DNA of 63,790 nucleotides, taken from IMG/VR virus record IMGVR_UViG_3300036852_000142, positions 1-63,790 of that record. One strand, written 5' to 3'. The notes below the pieces were generated by a model. The model ran no database searches and was not told the origin of the DNA. It was given only the letters and a program-made list of their open reading frames with translations. Shown here in pieces: positions 31,446 to 61,903 of the stretch (within the stretch, counting starts at the first letter, position 1; the number at the start of each line of letters is the position of its first letter). The translations under genes and the position numbers were made by a program. The DNA is from a virus.

Positions 31446-31802
31446 TTATCCCAAGTCATCCTGAACCCTGATTAACAGATAAGGCTTATCTACGTCTGTG
31501 GGAAAAGTAACGACCACGCCCCCAGGCAAAGTGGTTTGAAACTCCATTTCATAATCTCCAACTGTGTCGAGATCCGCAGCGGCCCATTGGTATATAAATT
31601 TCCCTAACGCTACGTTACTAAAACTAAAACTTGTTCCGTTGATCTTCAGCGTAGTTCGCCCTTGTCTCCGCATGAACACTTTTCTCGAAGTGTTTCCAGT
31701 ACAATCCACTACCGCATCATTCGCATCCCTGAATTGACCGGAGATGGTTCGGCCTACGTCATTCTGTTTGATTGTGTAATCGATTTTGTAACTCTCTGCC
31801 AT
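31446..31802 (-). CDS. BppU N-terminal-domain-like virion protein
   Basis: 118 residues of beta-rich sequence: KQNDVGRTISGQFRDAND, VFMRRQG, then DLDTVGDYEMEFQTTLPGG. This fits the N-terminal fold of baseplate upper protein BppU, which attaches receptor-binding modules. Stop overlaps the next start by one base with the repeat protein. Confidence 0.7.
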   Translation of the reverse strand: MAESYKIDYTIKQNDVGRTISGQFRDANDAVVDCTGNTSRKVFMRRQGRTTLKINGTSFSFSNVALGKFIYQWAAADLDTVGDYEMEFQTTLPGGVVVTFPTDVDKPYLLIRVQDDLG

Positions 31803-33226
31803 TACTCCAACTCCGCTCGCAGACTTCCATCGGTATCTAATATAACCGAGGTCGCACCGTTAGAATCTAAGCTAATGATCAATGCTCCGTTCGAGTCCAA
31901 GACAATGCTTGTTGGATTCAGAACCTGGCTTATCAACCCGCCACTTATAACAATGCTTCCGAAGGCTTCCTGGCTTACCACTCCGGTTAATGAGATTGTT
32001 GTGGTCGCATTCAAAACAAACGCGCCAAAAGCCTCGGCTGACCCAATCCCGCTAATAGCAATAAGATGATTAACCTTGAGAATGCCAAACGCTTCGCTGG
32101 AAACTATTCCGCTCAACCCAATTGAGACAGCGCCACGTAGAATTTCTGGTGTTCCAAACACTTCACCAGATCCGATTCCAGTCAAACTCACGAATACTGG
32201 GCCACCTGTGAGGATCGAAGAACCAAAAACCTCGCCGCTTCCTATACCCGGAAGCACAATAGTGCGATTCAACTGTGATGTGCCAAAGGTTTCTAGTGAA
32301 CCAATCCCTGTGAGTTGAATTGCTCGGTTTATCTGTGCTGTCCCAAAGTTTTCAACCGAGCCTATCCCTGGCGGACTTATTGTTACTGCGCCTGGTTGTA
32401 GGGCTGGAGTTCCGAAACTCTCTTGAGACGTAATCGCCGAAAGGCTAATAACAAATGCGCCGCTATTAACGATCAATGAGCCGAAAGTCTCTCCACTGGG
32501 AATACCAGTCAGCGAAATCGTTACGCTTCCCACCTGAATTGTTGTACTTCCGAAAGTTTCAGTACTGGCAATCCCGCTCAGTAATAATCGTAGATTTATT
32601 TGAGGCGTGCCAAAGCCTTCAGACGAGCCAATTCCACTGAGAGTAATGGTGCGATTGACGTAGTGAGATCCAAAACTTTCGGATGAGACGATTCCTACCA
32701 GATTGATCGTGTGATTGATCTGAGGCGCGCCAAATAGTTCTTGTGACGCAATTCCACTTAAAGTAATCGTTACTGCCCCACCGGAAAGCGTAAGAGTACC
32801 AAACGCTTCTACGCTTCCTATTGCGCTCGGCGAAACTGTCTGGTTCAGCCTGAACGTGCCAAACGTTTCTGCCGAACTAATGCCCGAAAGTGACAGGGCT
32901 TGATTGATCTTGGCGGTTCCAAAAGACTCGCCTGAGGTGATGGCCGTTGGGAATATTGAGACAGAACCACGCGCGACGGTGAGAGTCCCAAAAGCTTCTG
33001 CTGAACTTATTCCACTGGCTGTTATGTTTCGATTGATCTTGGCTGTACCGAAGGCTTCCGCCGAAGCGATTGCAGAAGTTGTGAGGTTACGGTTTAGCTT
33101 ATTGGTTCCAAACGCTTCTGCGCTGGCAATAGCGCCCACGCCTGAAACCGTTTGACTTACAGGCGGGAGAACGGCCGCAATTGGTTGGCCTTGCTGCGGC
33201 TGAGGAGGTGGATAGAATAACGCCAT
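31802..33226 (-). CDS. Repeat protein: 19 tandem GIxSxExFGT repeats (fibre-like)
   Basis: 474 residues with a Pro/Gln-rich start, then 19 repeats with core G-I-x-S-x-E-x-F-G-T in two length classes of about 20 and 23 residues, and a final strand-rich cap (IVLDSNGALIISLDSNGA). Such repeats occur in phage surface proteins and suggest a beta-solenoid or extended fibre. Located among virion proteins between head and tail-fibre genes. Confidence 0.75.
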   Translation of the reverse strand: MALFYPPPQPQQGQPIAAVLPPVSQTVSGVGAIASAEAFGTNKLNRNLTTSAIASAEAFGTAKINRNITASGISSAEAFGTLTVARGSVSIFPTAITSGESFGTAKINQALSLSGISSAETFGTFRLNQTVSPSAIGSVEAFGTLTLSGGAVTITLSGIASQELFGAPQINHTINLVGIVSSESFGSHYVNRTITLSGIGSSEGFGTPQINLRLLLSGIASTETFGSTTIQVGSVTISLTGIPSGETFGSLIVNSGAFVISLSAITSQESFGTPALQPGAVTISPPGIGSVENFGTAQINRAIQLTGIGSLETFGTSQLNRTIVLPGIGSGEVFGSSILTGGPVFVSLTGIGSGEVFGTPEILRGAVSIGLSGIVSSEAFGILKVNHLIAISGIGSAEAFGAFVLNATTTISLTGVVSQEAFGSIVISGGLISQVLNPTSIVLDSNGALIISLDSNGATSVILDTDGSLRAELE

Positions 33227-51081: not shown

Positions 51082-51386
51082 TAGCTCACCGCCCACCAAA
51101 GACAATCGTTACTCCCTATCTCTGTCCGTCTCACAAGTTTCATTTCCAAAAGTTCAGGCAACCGTCTTGCGATCTGGTATCTGTCCAACGTTCCAAGTTC
51201 TGCGAGCTCTTTACTGCTGCGACCGGGATATTGCTTCACAAGCTGAAGTGTTAGGGCTCTTTGCCCTCTCAAAGTTCCTGAACGCTCAATATCCTCTGCT
51301 GCCCTTCGAGATGAAGGAGGGTCTGTGCGGCGCGATCGCGATCTGGGAAAGTCGAGTTGGTATTGCACGCTCAAACCACACTCCAA
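51081..51386 (-). CDS. Winged-helix DNA-binding protein
   Basis: 101 residues. After a basic N-terminus, RALTLQLVKQYPGRSSKELAEL and RYQIARRLPELLEMKLVRR form a MarR-like winged helix. Likely a regulator of the small operon leading into int. Overlaps both neighbours. Confidence 0.65.
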   Translation of the reverse strand: MECGLSVQYQLDFPRSRSRRTDPPSSRRAAEDIERSGTLRGQRALTLQLVKQYPGRSSKELAELGTLDRYQIARRLPELLEMKLVRRTEIGSNDCLWWAVS

Positions 51387-51760
51387 TTAAACTTCTTAGT
51401 CTGTTTTCTTAAGAATGGGTTTAGAAAACTTTTCTCTTCAATGAAAACAACAACATCTTCCTTAACTTCCGGGCTAGGTTCCCGCGTCCCGCGCCGGTGC
51501 GTTATCGCAACTTCTTCCTGCCGGCGTTCAATGTGTCTCTCCAAGTAGCCATCCTTTGGCGGAGTTATCTTTACTGGTAGTCCTAAAGCCCGACGCTTGG
51601 AGCGCCTGCGTTCCTGATTAACGGTTGCCCGGTCTTTGTGACAAGTCTTGCAATAGCTGTGTAGACCGTCAGGACTTTTACGGTGCCTGTAGAAGTCCCA
51701 CACAGGAACATGCTGCCGGCAATCGCCACAGAACTTTGTTGCTATTCCTTCTTCGTTCAT
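51371..51760 (-). CDS. Zinc-ribbon protein related to HNH nucleases
   Basis: 129 residues. KFCGDCRQHVPVWDFYRHR followed by YCKTCHK is the same N-terminal zinc ribbon seen in the HNH endonuclease at 41268, but no His-Asn-His core follows. It may be a truncated recombination endonuclease or an independent DNA-binding protein. Confidence 0.55.
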   Translation of the reverse strand: MNEEGIATKFCGDCRQHVPVWDFYRHRKSPDGLHSYCKTCHKDRATVNQERRRSKRRALGLPVKITPPKDGYLERHIERRQEEVAITHRRGTREPSPEVKEDVVVFIEEKSFLNPFLRKQTKKFNWSVV

Positions 51761-54204: not shown

Positions 54205-54471
54205 TCACGTTGCTGTAGGCCAATACCGATTTAGTGGCTCAGGCCATTCTCCGTCGTATGTTCCGAACTCGATTTGCGAATACATCACAACGTCTAGGCC
54301 AAGTTGTTTTGCTTCATCCCGCTGGCTCACGTTTCGACTCAGACGATCCGCACACAGTGCCTTTCCTATATTAATTTTAAGTAATCGCTGGCCATTGATT
54401 CGGCCTGAGCCTTTACAAGTCGAGCACTTGAAATCGCCAGTCCGACAACCAGAAGGCCCGCAAACACTCAA
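54205..54471 (-). CDS. Zinc + Cro/CI-like helix-turn-helix regulator (TTG start)
   Basis: 88 residues. CGPSGC..CSTCKGSGR is a likely zinc element, followed by a Cro/CI-type helix-turn-helix (RLSRNVSQRDEAKQLGLDVVMYSQIEFG). The start is TTG 54471; the strongest ribosome-binding site, GGAGG at 54482-54486, instead fits ATG 54478 in another frame, which encodes only 21 residues. Candidate repressor or Cro. Confidence 0.6.
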   Translation of the reverse strand: MSVCGPSGCRTGDFKCSTCKGSGRINGQRLLKINIGKALCADRLSRNVSQRDEAKQLGLDVVMYSQIEFGTYDGEWPEPLNRYWPTAT

Positions 54472-58587: not shown

Positions 58588-58788
58588 TTAGGCCGGCATC
58601 TCTACGCGCTCATACTTTTTGGGAAATTTCTTGATATAGCGCGGGAAACCCAGCTTTAATATTTCGTCCAACGCCTGCGACCGCGTATGCCCACGCAGTT
58701 CTGCGGCCTCGTCCAATCTGGTTTTGAATTCCAGAGTGCTTCGCGTTGAAATGATTGGATTGTCTTCTTGTTTAATCTGTTCGCTCAT
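58588..58788 (-). CDS. Ribbon-helix-helix-like early-left protein
   Basis: 66 residues from ATG 58788. ISTRSTLEFKTRLDEAAELRG followed by TRSQALDEILKLG fits a ribbon-helix-helix fold, although the tail is longer than Arc. First gene after the leftward promoter; it may repress that promoter through the TATACCG palindrome. Confidence 0.6.
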   Translation of the reverse strand: MSEQIKQEDNPIISTRSTLEFKTRLDEAAELRGHTRSQALDEILKLGFPRYIKKFPKKYERVEMPA

Positions 58789-58800
58789 AGCGTATACCAA

Positions 58801-58819
58801 TATACCGTATATCGGTATA
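58801..58819. promoter_or_regulatory. Operator palindrome at leftward promoter
   Basis: TATACCGTATATCGGTATA is a perfect 7-bp inverted repeat with five central bases, overlapping the -10 of the leftward promoter. Another TATACC half-site lies eight bases away at 58793-58798. Confidence 0.65.
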
Positions 58820-58835
58820 TGTCTGCAAGCGTCAA
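58806..58835 (-). promoter_or_regulatory. Leftward early promoter (pL-like)
   Basis: On the minus strand TTGACG (58835-58830), 18 bp, TATACG (58811-58806). The -35 lies in GGTCACATTGACGCT, identical to the sequence around the rightward promoter at 59518. Confidence 0.55.
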
Positions 58836-58877
58836 TGTGACCGATGGTGTTTTACGGACTTGGAAAGGAGCGTTTAC

Positions 58878-59201
58878 ATGTATACAGTTCTCGGCAACGG
58901 TATGCCGCGAAAAAAGCCAGTAGGCCCGGTAGTTAATTTCCAACTCAAGCTGTACGGCGAGGAAGCAGAACGTTGGCTGAAAATCAGAGACCAAGCAAAG
59001 AAGCGGAACAACTACATAGGCGATACTGGCATCAATAGACGGTTGCTAGGACTCGATCCTGATAAGGCTGGGGAAGTCACGGAGAGAGACCGTGCGTTCT
59101 TTTTAGGCCCCCAATCAAGCAAACCAGCGGAAATGCTTGGCCGCACGCCTAGCGGCAAAGCCCATATCAAGGACGTGTCCCCCAAAGTTAGACACAGATA
59201 A
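58878..59201 (+). CDS. Ribbon-helix-helix-like protein in immunity region
   Basis: ATG 58878 is preceded by GGAAAGGAGCG; 107 residues. A short basic lead is followed by VNFQLKLYGEEAERWLKIRDQ and a second helix (YIGDTGINRRLLGL), the strand-helix-helix order of ribbon-helix-helix DNA-binding proteins, then a long flexible C-terminus. Candidate immunity repressor or co-factor. Lies between two divergent promoters and directly before the degenerate S24 gene. Confidence 0.5.
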   Translation: MYTVLGNGMPRKKPVGPVVNFQLKLYGEEAERWLKIRDQAKKRNNYIGDTGINRRLLGLDPDKAGEVTERDRAFFLGPQSSKPAEMLGRTPSGKAHIKDVSPKVRHR

Positions 59202-59222
59202 GATCAAGGGTATTCCTTTTCA

Positions 59223-59489
59223 ATGGAAAGTTGTAGCGATCCGGCCTCTTACGAGGTCTCGGATACTGTTGTTTTACCAACACTTGACCTCAACGAGTTG
59301 CTTCTAGAGCATCCCGCCGCTAGCTTTGTGTTTCGCTGCGACGAAAACCTGCTCATAGTTGACCGCGCCCAAAGACCCTACGAAGGATGCCTGGTTCTCG
59401 TAAAAACGTCTCACAGCTACCTTGTCGAGCTGTATACAGGCCAACAGACGTGGGGTGTCGTAACCTACCAACTCCACAAAACTGCCTAA
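59223..59489 (+). CDS. Degenerate UmuD/LexA-type S24 domain protein
   Basis: 88 residues. LDLNELLLEHPAASFVFR, NLLIVDR and C-terminal WGVVTYQLH match S24 family proteins of the UmuD type, which normally read LDLNELLI..PAATFF-RV-GDSM-GI-GDLLIVDR...WGVVT. The GDSM segment with the catalytic Ser is deleted (about 13 residues) and the catalytic Lys position holds Glu. It should retain the dimer fold but not self-cleave. Adjacent to a DNA-binding candidate, it could give that protein a dimerisation partner. Confidence 0.7.
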   Translation: MESCSDPASYEVSDTVVLPTLDLNELLLEHPAASFVFRCDENLLIVDRAQRPYEGCLVLVKTSHSYLVELYTGQQTWGVVTYQLHKTA

Positions 59490-59517
59490 GCTAAAACCGA
59501 AAACGAATTCGGTCACA

Positions 59518-59546
59518 TTGACGCTGGACTTGTATACAAATATAGC
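59518..59546 (+). promoter_or_regulatory. Rightward early promoter (pR-like)
   Basis: TTGACG (59518-59523), 17 bp, TATAGC (59541-59546). It would drive the accessory genes from 59595 through the genome junction to 6107. Confidence 0.6.
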
Positions 59547-59562
59547 GTATACATCTATACGC
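59530..59562. promoter_or_regulatory. Operator palindromes at rightward promoter
   Basis: TTGTATACAA (59530-59539) lies between the -35 and -10, and GCGTATACATCTATACGC (59545-59562) is a 7-bp inverted repeat with four central bases over the start point. The TATAC half-sites resemble those at the leftward promoter. Confidence 0.6.
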
Positions 59563-59594
59563 GAATCCGGCAGGGCCAAAAGGTTAGGTGTTGG

Positions 59595-59870
59595 GTGACT
59601 GAGAAACAAGAAATCAAAAAGAGCGGTTCTGAGGATTGCCCTCATTGCGGAGGCCGGCGAGAGCGCGAGCTCAGAGGCGTGCTGGTGCTCCTAATCGTCC
59701 TGCTCACCTTCGGAATCGGATACATCAAGTTATTAACTGGAGCCGCTGACGACACTCTTGTACCGCCGTGGGCTGCAGGTCTTAGCGGAGCCGCCGTGTC
59801 GATGTATTTCATGTCTCGTTCAGGAGAGCGGATGAGGGAGATGACGCGAGAGATATGTCGGAAACAATAA
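59595..59870 (+). CDS. Zinc-knuckle membrane protein
   Basis: 91 residues from GTG 59595. A CPHCGG knuckle precedes two hydrophobic segments (VLVLLIVLLTFGIGYIKLL and PWAAGLSGAAVSMYFM), then a basic end. First gene after the rightward promoter. Function unknown. Confidence 0.6.
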   Translation: MTEKQEIKKSGSEDCPHCGGRRERELRGVLVLLIVLLTFGIGYIKLLTGAADDTLVPPWAAGLSGAAVSMYFMSRSGERMREMTREICRKQ

Positions 59871-59879
59871 AGCAGAAAC

Positions 59880-60255
59880 AAGGGCGTCAATGCTATGGCC
59901 CGGAGCTGGTTCGGTGATTCATGGTGAGGTTCGGGCCGGCAGTCTAGGCGATGTTTGGTACGTCATGGATGGTCGCGGTTAGGTTCGGTACGTCAGGCTC
60001 GGTTCGGAAGATTAGGCCGATCAAGGCAGTGTTAGGTAAGGCGGGGCAGGCGAGGAGTGGAATCCCAGCGGCGAGTCAAGGAGCGGGTAGGAATGGCACG
60101 GCAGGTGCGGCGGGGCAGGCGAGGAGAGGACACGCTTGGATCGCAGCGGTGTTGTCCGGTTTGGCAAGGTAGACAGGGAAAGGCGGCGATTGGCCTGTAA
60201 GGGCGAATCGTGGCGAGGAAAGGTAATTCAATTCAACTTTACTGAAGGAGAAAGA
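59880..60255 (+). repeat. G-rich period-5 tract (GGNNN), upstream copy
   Basis: No gene. The plus strand has long runs of GG every five bases (for example GGTTAGGTTCGGTAC and GGCTCGGTTCGG) and repeats of GGCAGGCGAGG. GG-N3-GG-N3-GG-N3-GG can form two-layer G-quadruplexes in the RNA. Closely similar sequence follows the next gene at 61036-61393. Confidence 0.7.
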
Positions 60256-61035
60256 ATGGGAACGAAAGCAACAAAACAATTAGCAGATAACGCAGACGAA
60301 ATGATGGCTAACGCAAAATCGTTAGTCATTCAGCAACCAACAATTTTCAGCGTGTCATTAGAGGTTCAAGGCACGGCTGACTTAATTCAAAACCGATTCA
60401 GTCAGAAGTCGGTTGAGCAGATGCTTCGCAAACACATGGGCATCAGCGTCCAACGTGAAAGCAAGAAACCTCGCGAAGTTTTGGAAGATGCGACGGTTCT
60501 CAATACGGATGGAAAAGTTTGTATTCCGCCCACGTCATTCAAACTGGCAATGATCGCGGCGGCGAGTCAGGTTAAGAATCTCAAGAAAACACAGCTCCGC
60601 ACAGCTTTGTTTATTCAGGGCAACTCGATCCCTATCACTTACCGCGAAATGGTTCCGCGCATGGATATTACGCGCACGTCCGGTATCGGGCGCACGCCAG
60701 ATGTTCGCTTCCGTCCGTCATTCCAAGACTGGAAAGCAAGAATGACGATCCAGTTTGCCGACACGCTGTCAGTTCAAAGCGTGGTCGATTTACTCAACCG
60801 CGCGGGGCAAGTTGGGGTCGGGGAATGGCGCCCTGAGAAAAACGGCGTGTTTGGAACATTCAAAGTTTCCCGTCACGTTGATACGCCAAAAGAGATTAGC
60901 GAAATCGAAGCACAGTGCGCGGTTCCGTTAGTGCCGTTGCGAATTCCTGATTGGGCACTTGACATGGACATTAACCCCGAAGTCTTGCAGAAGATTTTCG
61001 CGGCTCAAGGCGAATCTGAAGAAGTTGCCGCGTAG
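60256..61035 (+). CDS. Conserved early phage protein
   Basis: 259 residues from ATG 60256 (AAGGAGAAAGA); the longer frame from 60136 is rejected. VSLEVQGTADLIQNRFSQKS, MVPRMDITRTSGIGRTPDVR, and a Gly-rich AGQVGVGEWRPEKNGVFGTF loop are conserved in many siphoviruses. The Gly-rich loop resembles RAMP-type RNA-binding proteins, an analogy only. Flanked on both sides by G-rich period-5 tracts. Confidence 0.65.
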   Translation: MGTKATKQLADNADEMMANAKSLVIQQPTIFSVSLEVQGTADLIQNRFSQKSVEQMLRKHMGISVQRESKKPREVLEDATVLNTDGKVCIPPTSFKLAMIAAASQVKNLKKTQLRTALFIQGNSIPITYREMVPRMDITRTSGIGRTPDVRFRPSFQDWKARMTIQFADTLSVQSVVDLLNRAGQVGVGEWRPEKNGVFGTFKVSRHVDTPKEISEIEAQCAVPLVPLRIPDWALDMDINPEVLQKIFAAQGESEEVAA

Positions 61036-61393
61036 TAGCAGAGGCAACGCAATTCGGGGCACGGCTTGTTGGGGCACGGATTGGCAGGCGGGGCTTATTT
61101 AGGCTTGGCATTAGAGGCACGTGAAGGCACGGTAAGGCGGGTGGGGCAATGAGTGGATGGTTAGGATTGGCTGCGTCTGGAGAGGTGAGACAAGGCAGGC
61201 GAGGAGAGGCACGACGCGGGAGCCTGGGCGTGGATTCGGAAGGGCTGGGCGAGGCAGGCAGGGACAAGCTAGGTCGGGTTTGTACGGGCGAGGAAAGTCC
61301 GGGTAAGGCAATCACGGCAGGCATGGCTAACTAGGACAGGCTTGGAAAGGACGGGCGAGGCCCGGCACACATCAACTTTAAGGAGACAAAAAC
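61036..61393 (+). repeat. G-rich period-5 tract, downstream copy
   Basis: Same type of sequence as 59880-60255, including the shared GGCAGGCGAGGAGAGG. Frames on the opposite strand across it are Pro/Ser/Leu-rich and not real genes. Confidence 0.7.
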
Positions 61394-61903
61394 ATGAGTA
61401 CAGATATAACCAAAATTGCGGGCACGGAAATTCAGTATCTGCCGACAGAAGTGAAGCGCGAAAGGAAAGCGGTGGTTGTAGATCGTGAGCTAGAACGCAT
61501 CTACAGCCAACACCAAAGAATTACCGTTGATGATGTTCTGGCGGACGCTTTGAACGATGAAAGCCCACTACATAGTTACTTTGAATGGGATGACGCAGCG
61601 GCCGGTGAAAAGTACCGGCGAGTGCAAGCCTATTCACTAATTATGAGCAGCAAGTTCATTGTTCAACTTGTACAAGATGGCAAGGTAGAACCCAGAACAA
61701 TTTCTCAGTCAGGACAAGTCCGCAAGCTCGTTAGCGCATTTCGGGGTGAAGGATTCCGAATGCGAAATGAGGCACTAGCGGACGGTGAAATGCGCCAGGC
61801 GATTATCGAGGGCAAGAAATCTGTCTTGCGCTCTTGGTGCGAGTCCACCATTGACATTCAAGAATTGCAACCATTGCGCGAGTCGATTCTGGCGAAGTTG
61901 TAA
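61394..61903 (+). CDS. Conserved early phage protein (SPLH-FEWDD type)
   Basis: 169 residues. ITVDDVLADALNDESPLHSYFEWDDAAAGEKYRRVQAYSLI is the recognisable core of a small phage family often encoded next to the previous gene type. Role unknown. Starts after AAGGAGACAAAAAC. Confidence 0.65.
   Translation: MSTDITKIAGTEIQYLPTEVKRERKAVVVDRELERIYSQHQRITVDDVLADALNDESPLHSYFEWDDAAAGEKYRRVQAYSLIMSSKFIVQLVQDGKVEPRTISQSGQVRKLVSAFRGEGFRMRNEALADGEMRQAIIEGKKSVLRSWCESTIDIQELQPLRESILAKL

What the first reader, a model, noticed from the sequence alone, without database searches (positions are those of the whole stretch)
59223..59489. UmuD-like protein lacking its catalytic centre inside the immunity region
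Strong S24 signatures flank a deletion exactly where Gly-Asp-Ser-Met should be, and the Lys position is Glu. With a ribbon-helix-helix-like gene immediately upstream and both lying between the early promoters, this could be a split, non-SOS-cleavable repressor or a decoy that pairs with host UmuD/LexA.
Basis: partly seen in the sequence, partly recalled or inferred. Interest (0 to 1): 0.7.

Follow-up and report, generated by a model that had tools for sequence, protein, structure and literature searches.

The report
Protease-dead UmuD fragment in phage switch
A temperate phage carries, between its two early promoters, a small protein clearly derived from the DNA-damage protein UmuD but with its self-cutting centre neatly removed; it probably acts as a pairing module for the phage's repressor, or it is a shrunken relic, and no second example was found.

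Summary
ORF 59223-59489 (+, 88 aa) matches UmuD models (phrog_811 E=1.5e-5; NCBIfam UmuD E=2e-5). AlphaFold, guided by UmuD relatives, gives a compact five-stranded core (pLDDT 93-97); its best PDB matches are all UmuD'. Normal viral UmuDs travel with UmuC (77 of 80; the other three are cut at the contig end); this window has none. The gene and the preceding ORF (58878, same frame, one stop between) sit between two divergent, inverted promoter copies carrying phased TATAC half-sites; 5 of the window's 6 GTATAC sites lie in this 0.76 kb (P about 1e-6): a lambda-like immunity layout. The ribbon-helix-helix reading of the neighbours rests on sequence pattern only. No deletion-bearing relative was found in IMG/VR or 396 acidobacterial genomes, and codon usage is at the low edge for this phage, so a decaying relic is not excluded. 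Best guess: a protease-dead dimerisation module of a two-piece, non-cleavable repressor (0.38). Known kind, new variant.

The parts
59223..59489 (+). UmuD'-derived, protease-dead S24-like protein, 88 aa; 11 residues around the catalytic Ser and about 25 residues further on are missing, Lys replaced by Glu
   Evidence: homology, alignment; fold
58878..59201 (+). putative DNA-binding protein (ribbon-helix-helix-like pattern VNFQLKLYGEEAERWLKIRDQAKKRNNYIGDTGINRRLLGL), 107 aa, in the same frame as the UmuD-like ORF
   Evidence: sequence; SD AAGGAG at 58865-58870; codon score typical of this phage; no profile hit, structure inconclusive
59199..59201 (+). TAA stop: the only stop between the two ORFs, which share a frame; ATG of the UmuD-like ORF follows 7 codons later
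58588..58788 (-). divergent small gene, first of the leftward operon, ribbon-helix-helix-like pattern (STRSTLEFKTRLDEAAELRGHTRSQALDEILKLGF)
   Evidence: weak match to the end of a HicB-like profile, E=0.19
58806..58835 (-). putative leftward early promoter PL (TTGACG - 18 - TATACG)
   Evidence: inference from consensus
59518..59546 (+). putative rightward early promoter PR (TTGACG - 17 - TATAGC)
   Evidence: inference from consensus
58828..58853 (.). left arm of the 26-nt inverted repeat that frames the two-gene unit
   Evidence: 85% complementary
59500..59525 (.). right arm of the 26-nt inverted repeat
58792..58820 (.). operator-like array at PL: four TATAC/GTATA half-sites, 7-8 bp apart
59531..59560 (.). 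operator-like array at PR: the same half-sites at nearly the same offsets from TTGACG
58879..58886 (.). TGTATACA over the start codon of the 58878 gene
59431..59438 (.). TGTATACA inside the UmuD-like ORF

Best explanation
The ORF is a UmuD'-type S24 domain that has lost its protease centre and a surface hairpin but keeps the beta core and the C-terminal strand. Sitting with the 58878 protein between PL and PR of a temperate phage, it most likely serves as a protein-protein (dimerisation) module of a two-polypeptide repressor: the 58878 protein binds the TATAC arrays at both early promoters, and the UmuD-like protein helps it dimerise or bridge operators. Because Ser, Lys and the active-site loop are gone, RecA-stimulated self-cleavage cannot relieve it; induction would need another route. 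Shown: UmuD descent, loss of the dyad, predicted fold, gene layout, clustered repeats. Inferred: DNA binding by 58878, interaction of the two proteins, repression, mode of induction.
For: UmuD homology; clean in-frame removal of the active-site loop with core and C-terminal WGVVTYxLH strand kept; confident fold with UmuD' structures as the top PDB matches, followed by phage 186 and lambda repressor C-terminal domains and LexA; the same strands appear, at low confidence, in a fold made without an alignment; position between two inverted promoter copies with matching half-site arrays, 5 of 6 GTATAC and all 3 exact TGTATACA in the window within 0.76 kb; domain order and frame as in a LexA/UmuDAb-type repressor with a stop between the domains; no other S24 protein in the window; integrase present.
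Against: No relative with the same deletions in the collections searched, so there is no conservation to show selection. No profile calls 58878 a DNA-binding protein. Synonymous codon usage is low for this phage (4% of coding windows score as low or lower). Sharing a frame has a 1 in 3 chance. The deleted loop contains residues that, by recollection of UmuD, lie near the dimer contact. The fold used UmuD relatives as alignment, so it leans towards UmuD.
Confidence: 0.38

Rival explanations
1. Relic: a once normal UmuD or S24 repressor domain of the phage, worn down by deletions and now without function, its start and stop intact by chance.
For: Orphan: no relative with the deletions; codon usage at the low edge of this phage's genes; two separate deletions plus loss of Lys; weak, distant ribosome site (AAGGG, 12 nt before ATG).
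Against: Both deletions are in frame and fall outside the predicted core strands; 88 codons without a stop; a confident compact fold; no remnant of umuC beside it; neighbouring short genes have equally low codon scores (59595 and 57811).
Confidence: 0.3
2. Decoy or modulator of host SOS proteins: the protein pairs with host UmuD or LexA, or docks on RecA, and blocks or redirects them; the S24 core is kept for binding and the protease discarded.
For: UmuD' core and C-terminal strand kept, protease lost; starts at about the UmuD cleavage site, so it resembles the activated form; phage proteins acting on LexA are known (gp7, described in PMC11332147); no UmuC of its own in the window.
Against: Position between the operators favours a role in the phage's own switch; only 11 of 396 acidobacterial genomes gave any match to the query and only a few of these are true UmuDs, so UmuD may not be a common target in the guessed host phylum; no binding data.
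Confidence: 0.22
3. Single read-through product: the 58878 protein and the UmuD-like ORF are made as one fusion by stop-codon read-through, or were one gene until a recent nonsense mutation.
For: Same frame, a single TAA, no other stop; order DNA-binding part then S24 part as in known repressors.
Against: A 1 in 3 chance of sharing a frame; an ATG and a possible ribosome site follow the stop; no fused relative found (one search shows only ordinary UmuDs).
Confidence: 0.07
4. Assembly or sequencing error in a normal gene.
For: Single metagenomic contig, reads not available.
Against: Two in-frame gaps and a Lys to Glu change together are not a typical error; no near homologue with Ser and Lys was found.
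Confidence: 0.03

Closest known systems
UmuD / UmuD' (DNA polymerase V subunit), incl. phage P1 HumD
   Same: Sequence family, fold, DLN..LL.HPAA.F and LLIVDR motifs, C-terminal WGVVTY strand; starts near the cleavage site like UmuD' and HumD
   Different: No catalytic Ser or Lys, 11 + about 25 residues missing, no UmuC partner, lies in the immunity region
Repressor C-terminal domain of phage 186 (PDB 2fkd, 2fjr) and other repressors without autocleavage
   Same: S24-like fold in a phage repressor; 186 is induced by the antirepressor Tum (PMC3121763); fold matches at ranks 16 and 19
   Different: 186 CI is one chain with its own helix-turn-helix; here the S24-like part is a separate ORF of UmuD descent
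UmuDAb-DdrR of Acinetobacter
   Same: A UmuD protein turned repressor, working with a second small protein (PMC11332147)
   Different: UmuDAb keeps its protease and its own DNA-binding domain; DdrR is not a UmuD
P22 Arc/Mnt immI region (own knowledge)
   Same: Temperate-phage control by ribbon-helix-helix proteins at short repeated operators
   Different: No S24-type partner; the ribbon-helix-helix identity is unproven here

Membership tests
UmuD family | profile match | tested here: met
   phrog_811 E=1.5e-5; NF007621 24.5 bits against a cut-off of 110: significant but far below the family cut-off
UmuD family | Ser-Lys catalytic dyad | tested here: not met
   loop with Ser deleted, Lys is Glu; in 154 comparison loci with the motif only one lacks Ser
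UmuD family | S24 beta core | tested here: met
   with the caveat that the alignment was made of UmuDs
UmuD family | adjacent umuC | tested here: not met
   no PF00817 in the record; 77 of 80 viral UmuD loci have it, the other 3 end at the contig edge
UmuD family | N-terminal arm before the cleavage site | tested here: not met
   ORF starts at about the cleavage site, as in UmuD' and HumD
S24 phage repressor (LexA/CI type) | N-terminal DNA-binding domain in the same chain | tested here: not met
   stop codon TAA 59199-59201 lies between the ORFs
S24 phage repressor (LexA/CI type) | repeated operators at both divergent early promoters | tested here: met
   (sequence only; binding not tested)
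Ribbon-helix-helix repressor (for 58878) | profile or structure match | tested here: inconclusive
   no Pfam, PHROGs or PDB match to a ribbon-helix-helix family; fold without alignment uninformative
SOS decoy | binding to host UmuD, LexA or RecA | not testable with these tools
   needs binding experiments or multimer prediction

The most novel reading that the evidence does not exclude
A temperate phage whose immunity repressor is split in two polypeptides: a ribbon-helix-helix DNA-binding protein and a separately encoded UmuD' core stripped of its protease that supplies dimerisation or operator bridging, giving an SOS-deaf relative of the LexA/CI design.
Probability: 0.22. Interest if true: 0.65.

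Novelty: new variant of a known kind. Interest (0 to 1): 0.45.

Why it matters
UmuD is known as a polymerase manager and, in Acinetobacter, as a full repressor that still cleaves itself. A stand-alone UmuD core with the protease removed inside a phage switch would show the S24 fold reduced to a pure pairing module, and would predict a lysogen that ignores the usual RecA signal. It can be tested with two small genes and two promoter fragments.

Tried and rejected
Vibrio phage SIO-2/VHB1 ungapped match: antisense to an annotated gene, chance. DNA-pattern scans of viral contigs for the deletion, fixed 7-residue gap (none) and 4-10 residues with a CAT histidine codon (six, all chance). Searches with UmuD alignments returned only ordinary UmuDs; their seed patterns include the stretch next to the active site, so they would miss most deletion forms. 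Single-protein scans of viral and genome contigs: none. Best acidobacterial hits are ordinary UmuDs, no fusion. RHH-like ORFs: no convincing relatives, and the two do not match each other. The shadow ORF 59304-59645(-) overlaps antisense and was not taken as a gene. Terminase search for a named relative: none. Literature: no paper found on a ribbon-helix-helix plus S24 repressor.

Full report
What is there. The window is a linear IMG/VR virus record of 63,790 bases. It has portal, tail, endolysin, integrase and DnaC-like loader genes, so it looks like a temperate tailed phage. The closest bacterial-genome match to its 60256 protein is on a Candidatus Sulfotelmatobacter contig, 59% identity, which suggests but does not prove an acidobacterial host.

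The ORF 59223-59489 (88 aa) matches UmuD models: phrog_811 E=1.5e-5, NCBIfam UmuD E=2.1e-5. Pfam S24 does not ring. Aligned with 30 distinct viral UmuDs it is 20-40% identical. It lacks 11 residues spanning the Gly-Asp-Ser-Met loop, reads Glu at the catalytic Lys, and lacks a further block of about 25 residues before the C-terminal strand. Its N-terminus lies at about the UmuD cleavage site, so it corresponds to UmuD'.

Structure. With the 30 UmuDs as alignment, AlphaFold gives mean pLDDT 85 and 93-97 in most of the core, with five strands. The five best PDB matches are UmuD' or UmuD (probability 0.99-1.00), followed among others by the lambda-186 hybrid, 186 and lambda repressor domains and LexA; E-values are modest (7.6e-3 at best). 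The alignment biases the model towards UmuD. A fold of the read-through product without any alignment has low confidence (pLDDT 32) but places the same strands.

Is it normal for phage UmuDs? No. Of 80 viral UmuD loci, 77 have a UmuC-like polymerase beside the gene and the other three stop at the contig end; in 154 loci where the motif could be read only one lacks the Ser, having Cys. The present record has no UmuC.

Surroundings. Upstream in the same frame lies ORF 58878-59201 with a good ribosome site; one TAA and seven codons separate it from the UmuD-like ATG. A 26-nt inverted repeat frames the pair (58828-58853 and 59500-59525). Each arm runs outward into TTGACG, a TATA-like box 17-18 nt on, and TATAC/GTATA half-sites 7-8 bp apart at nearly the same offsets. 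GTATAC occurs six times in the record, five of them in 58792-59552; random placement gives about 1e-6. All three exact TGTATACA lie here too. The consensus promoter scan by itself does not single these out, so the promoters are inferred from the shared layout. PL leads to the leftward gene 58788-58588 and the replication operon, PR to 59595 and the rightward operon. This is the layout of a lambda-like immunity region with the two ORFs in the place of the repressor.

How it may work. The best reading is a protease-dead UmuD' core acting as pairing module for a DNA-binding partner, probably the 58878 protein. Precedents: phage 186 is induced by the antirepressor Tum, and Gifsy repressors lack the autocleavage motif (PMC3121763); in Acinetobacter UmuDAb dimerisation matters more for operator binding than its helix-turn-helix, and a small corepressor assists it (PMC11332147). 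Rivals are a worn relic and a decoy for host SOS proteins.

Limits. No second example exists in what could be searched: viral contigs, genome contigs, 396 acidobacterial genomes. The scans with UmuD alignments were seeded next to the active site and would miss most deletion forms, so absence is not proven. Codon evidence leans slightly to a relic or a recent arrival: the raw codon score is below all coding windows, but with amino-acid composition removed it is at the 4th percentile, alongside neighbouring short genes. The ribbon-helix-helix reading of 58878 and 58588 is by eye only. The deletion by itself does not say whether the protein still dimerises.

Noticed in passing
window 59900-60250 and 61036-61393; L005 6754-7172, L006 3240-3900, L009 6708-7900, L163 6486-7640: G-rich, strand-skewed, apparently non-coding tracts of degenerate units like CGGCAGGCGAGG flank the conserved 60256 gene and recur downstream of its relatives (18 copies of GGCGAGGC in L009; GC skew 0.38-0.47 in the window and L005).
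   Followed up: partly
window 60256-61035 and 61394-61903: Two adjacent genes of unknown function (phrog_4652, phrog_15946) conserved together in many viral contigs, sometimes in swapped order (L005).
   Followed up: partly
window 54205-54471 (-): Small ORF combining a cysteine-rich zinc-finger-like start (CSTCKGSG) with a partial HTH_3 match (15.7 bits, below cut-off) in the replication module.
   Followed up: no
window 51374-51760 (-): Small zinc-ribbon/HNH-like protein matching Lar-like restriction alleviation and endonuclease VII families.
   Followed up: no
L157 2438-2911: A viral UmuD with Cys in place of the catalytic Ser and Arg near the Lys position (FILRAYL).
   Followed up: no
window 31802-33226 (-): 474-aa protein made of many degenerate repeats of the type GIxSxExFGxxxxN beside tail-region genes.
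   Followed up: no
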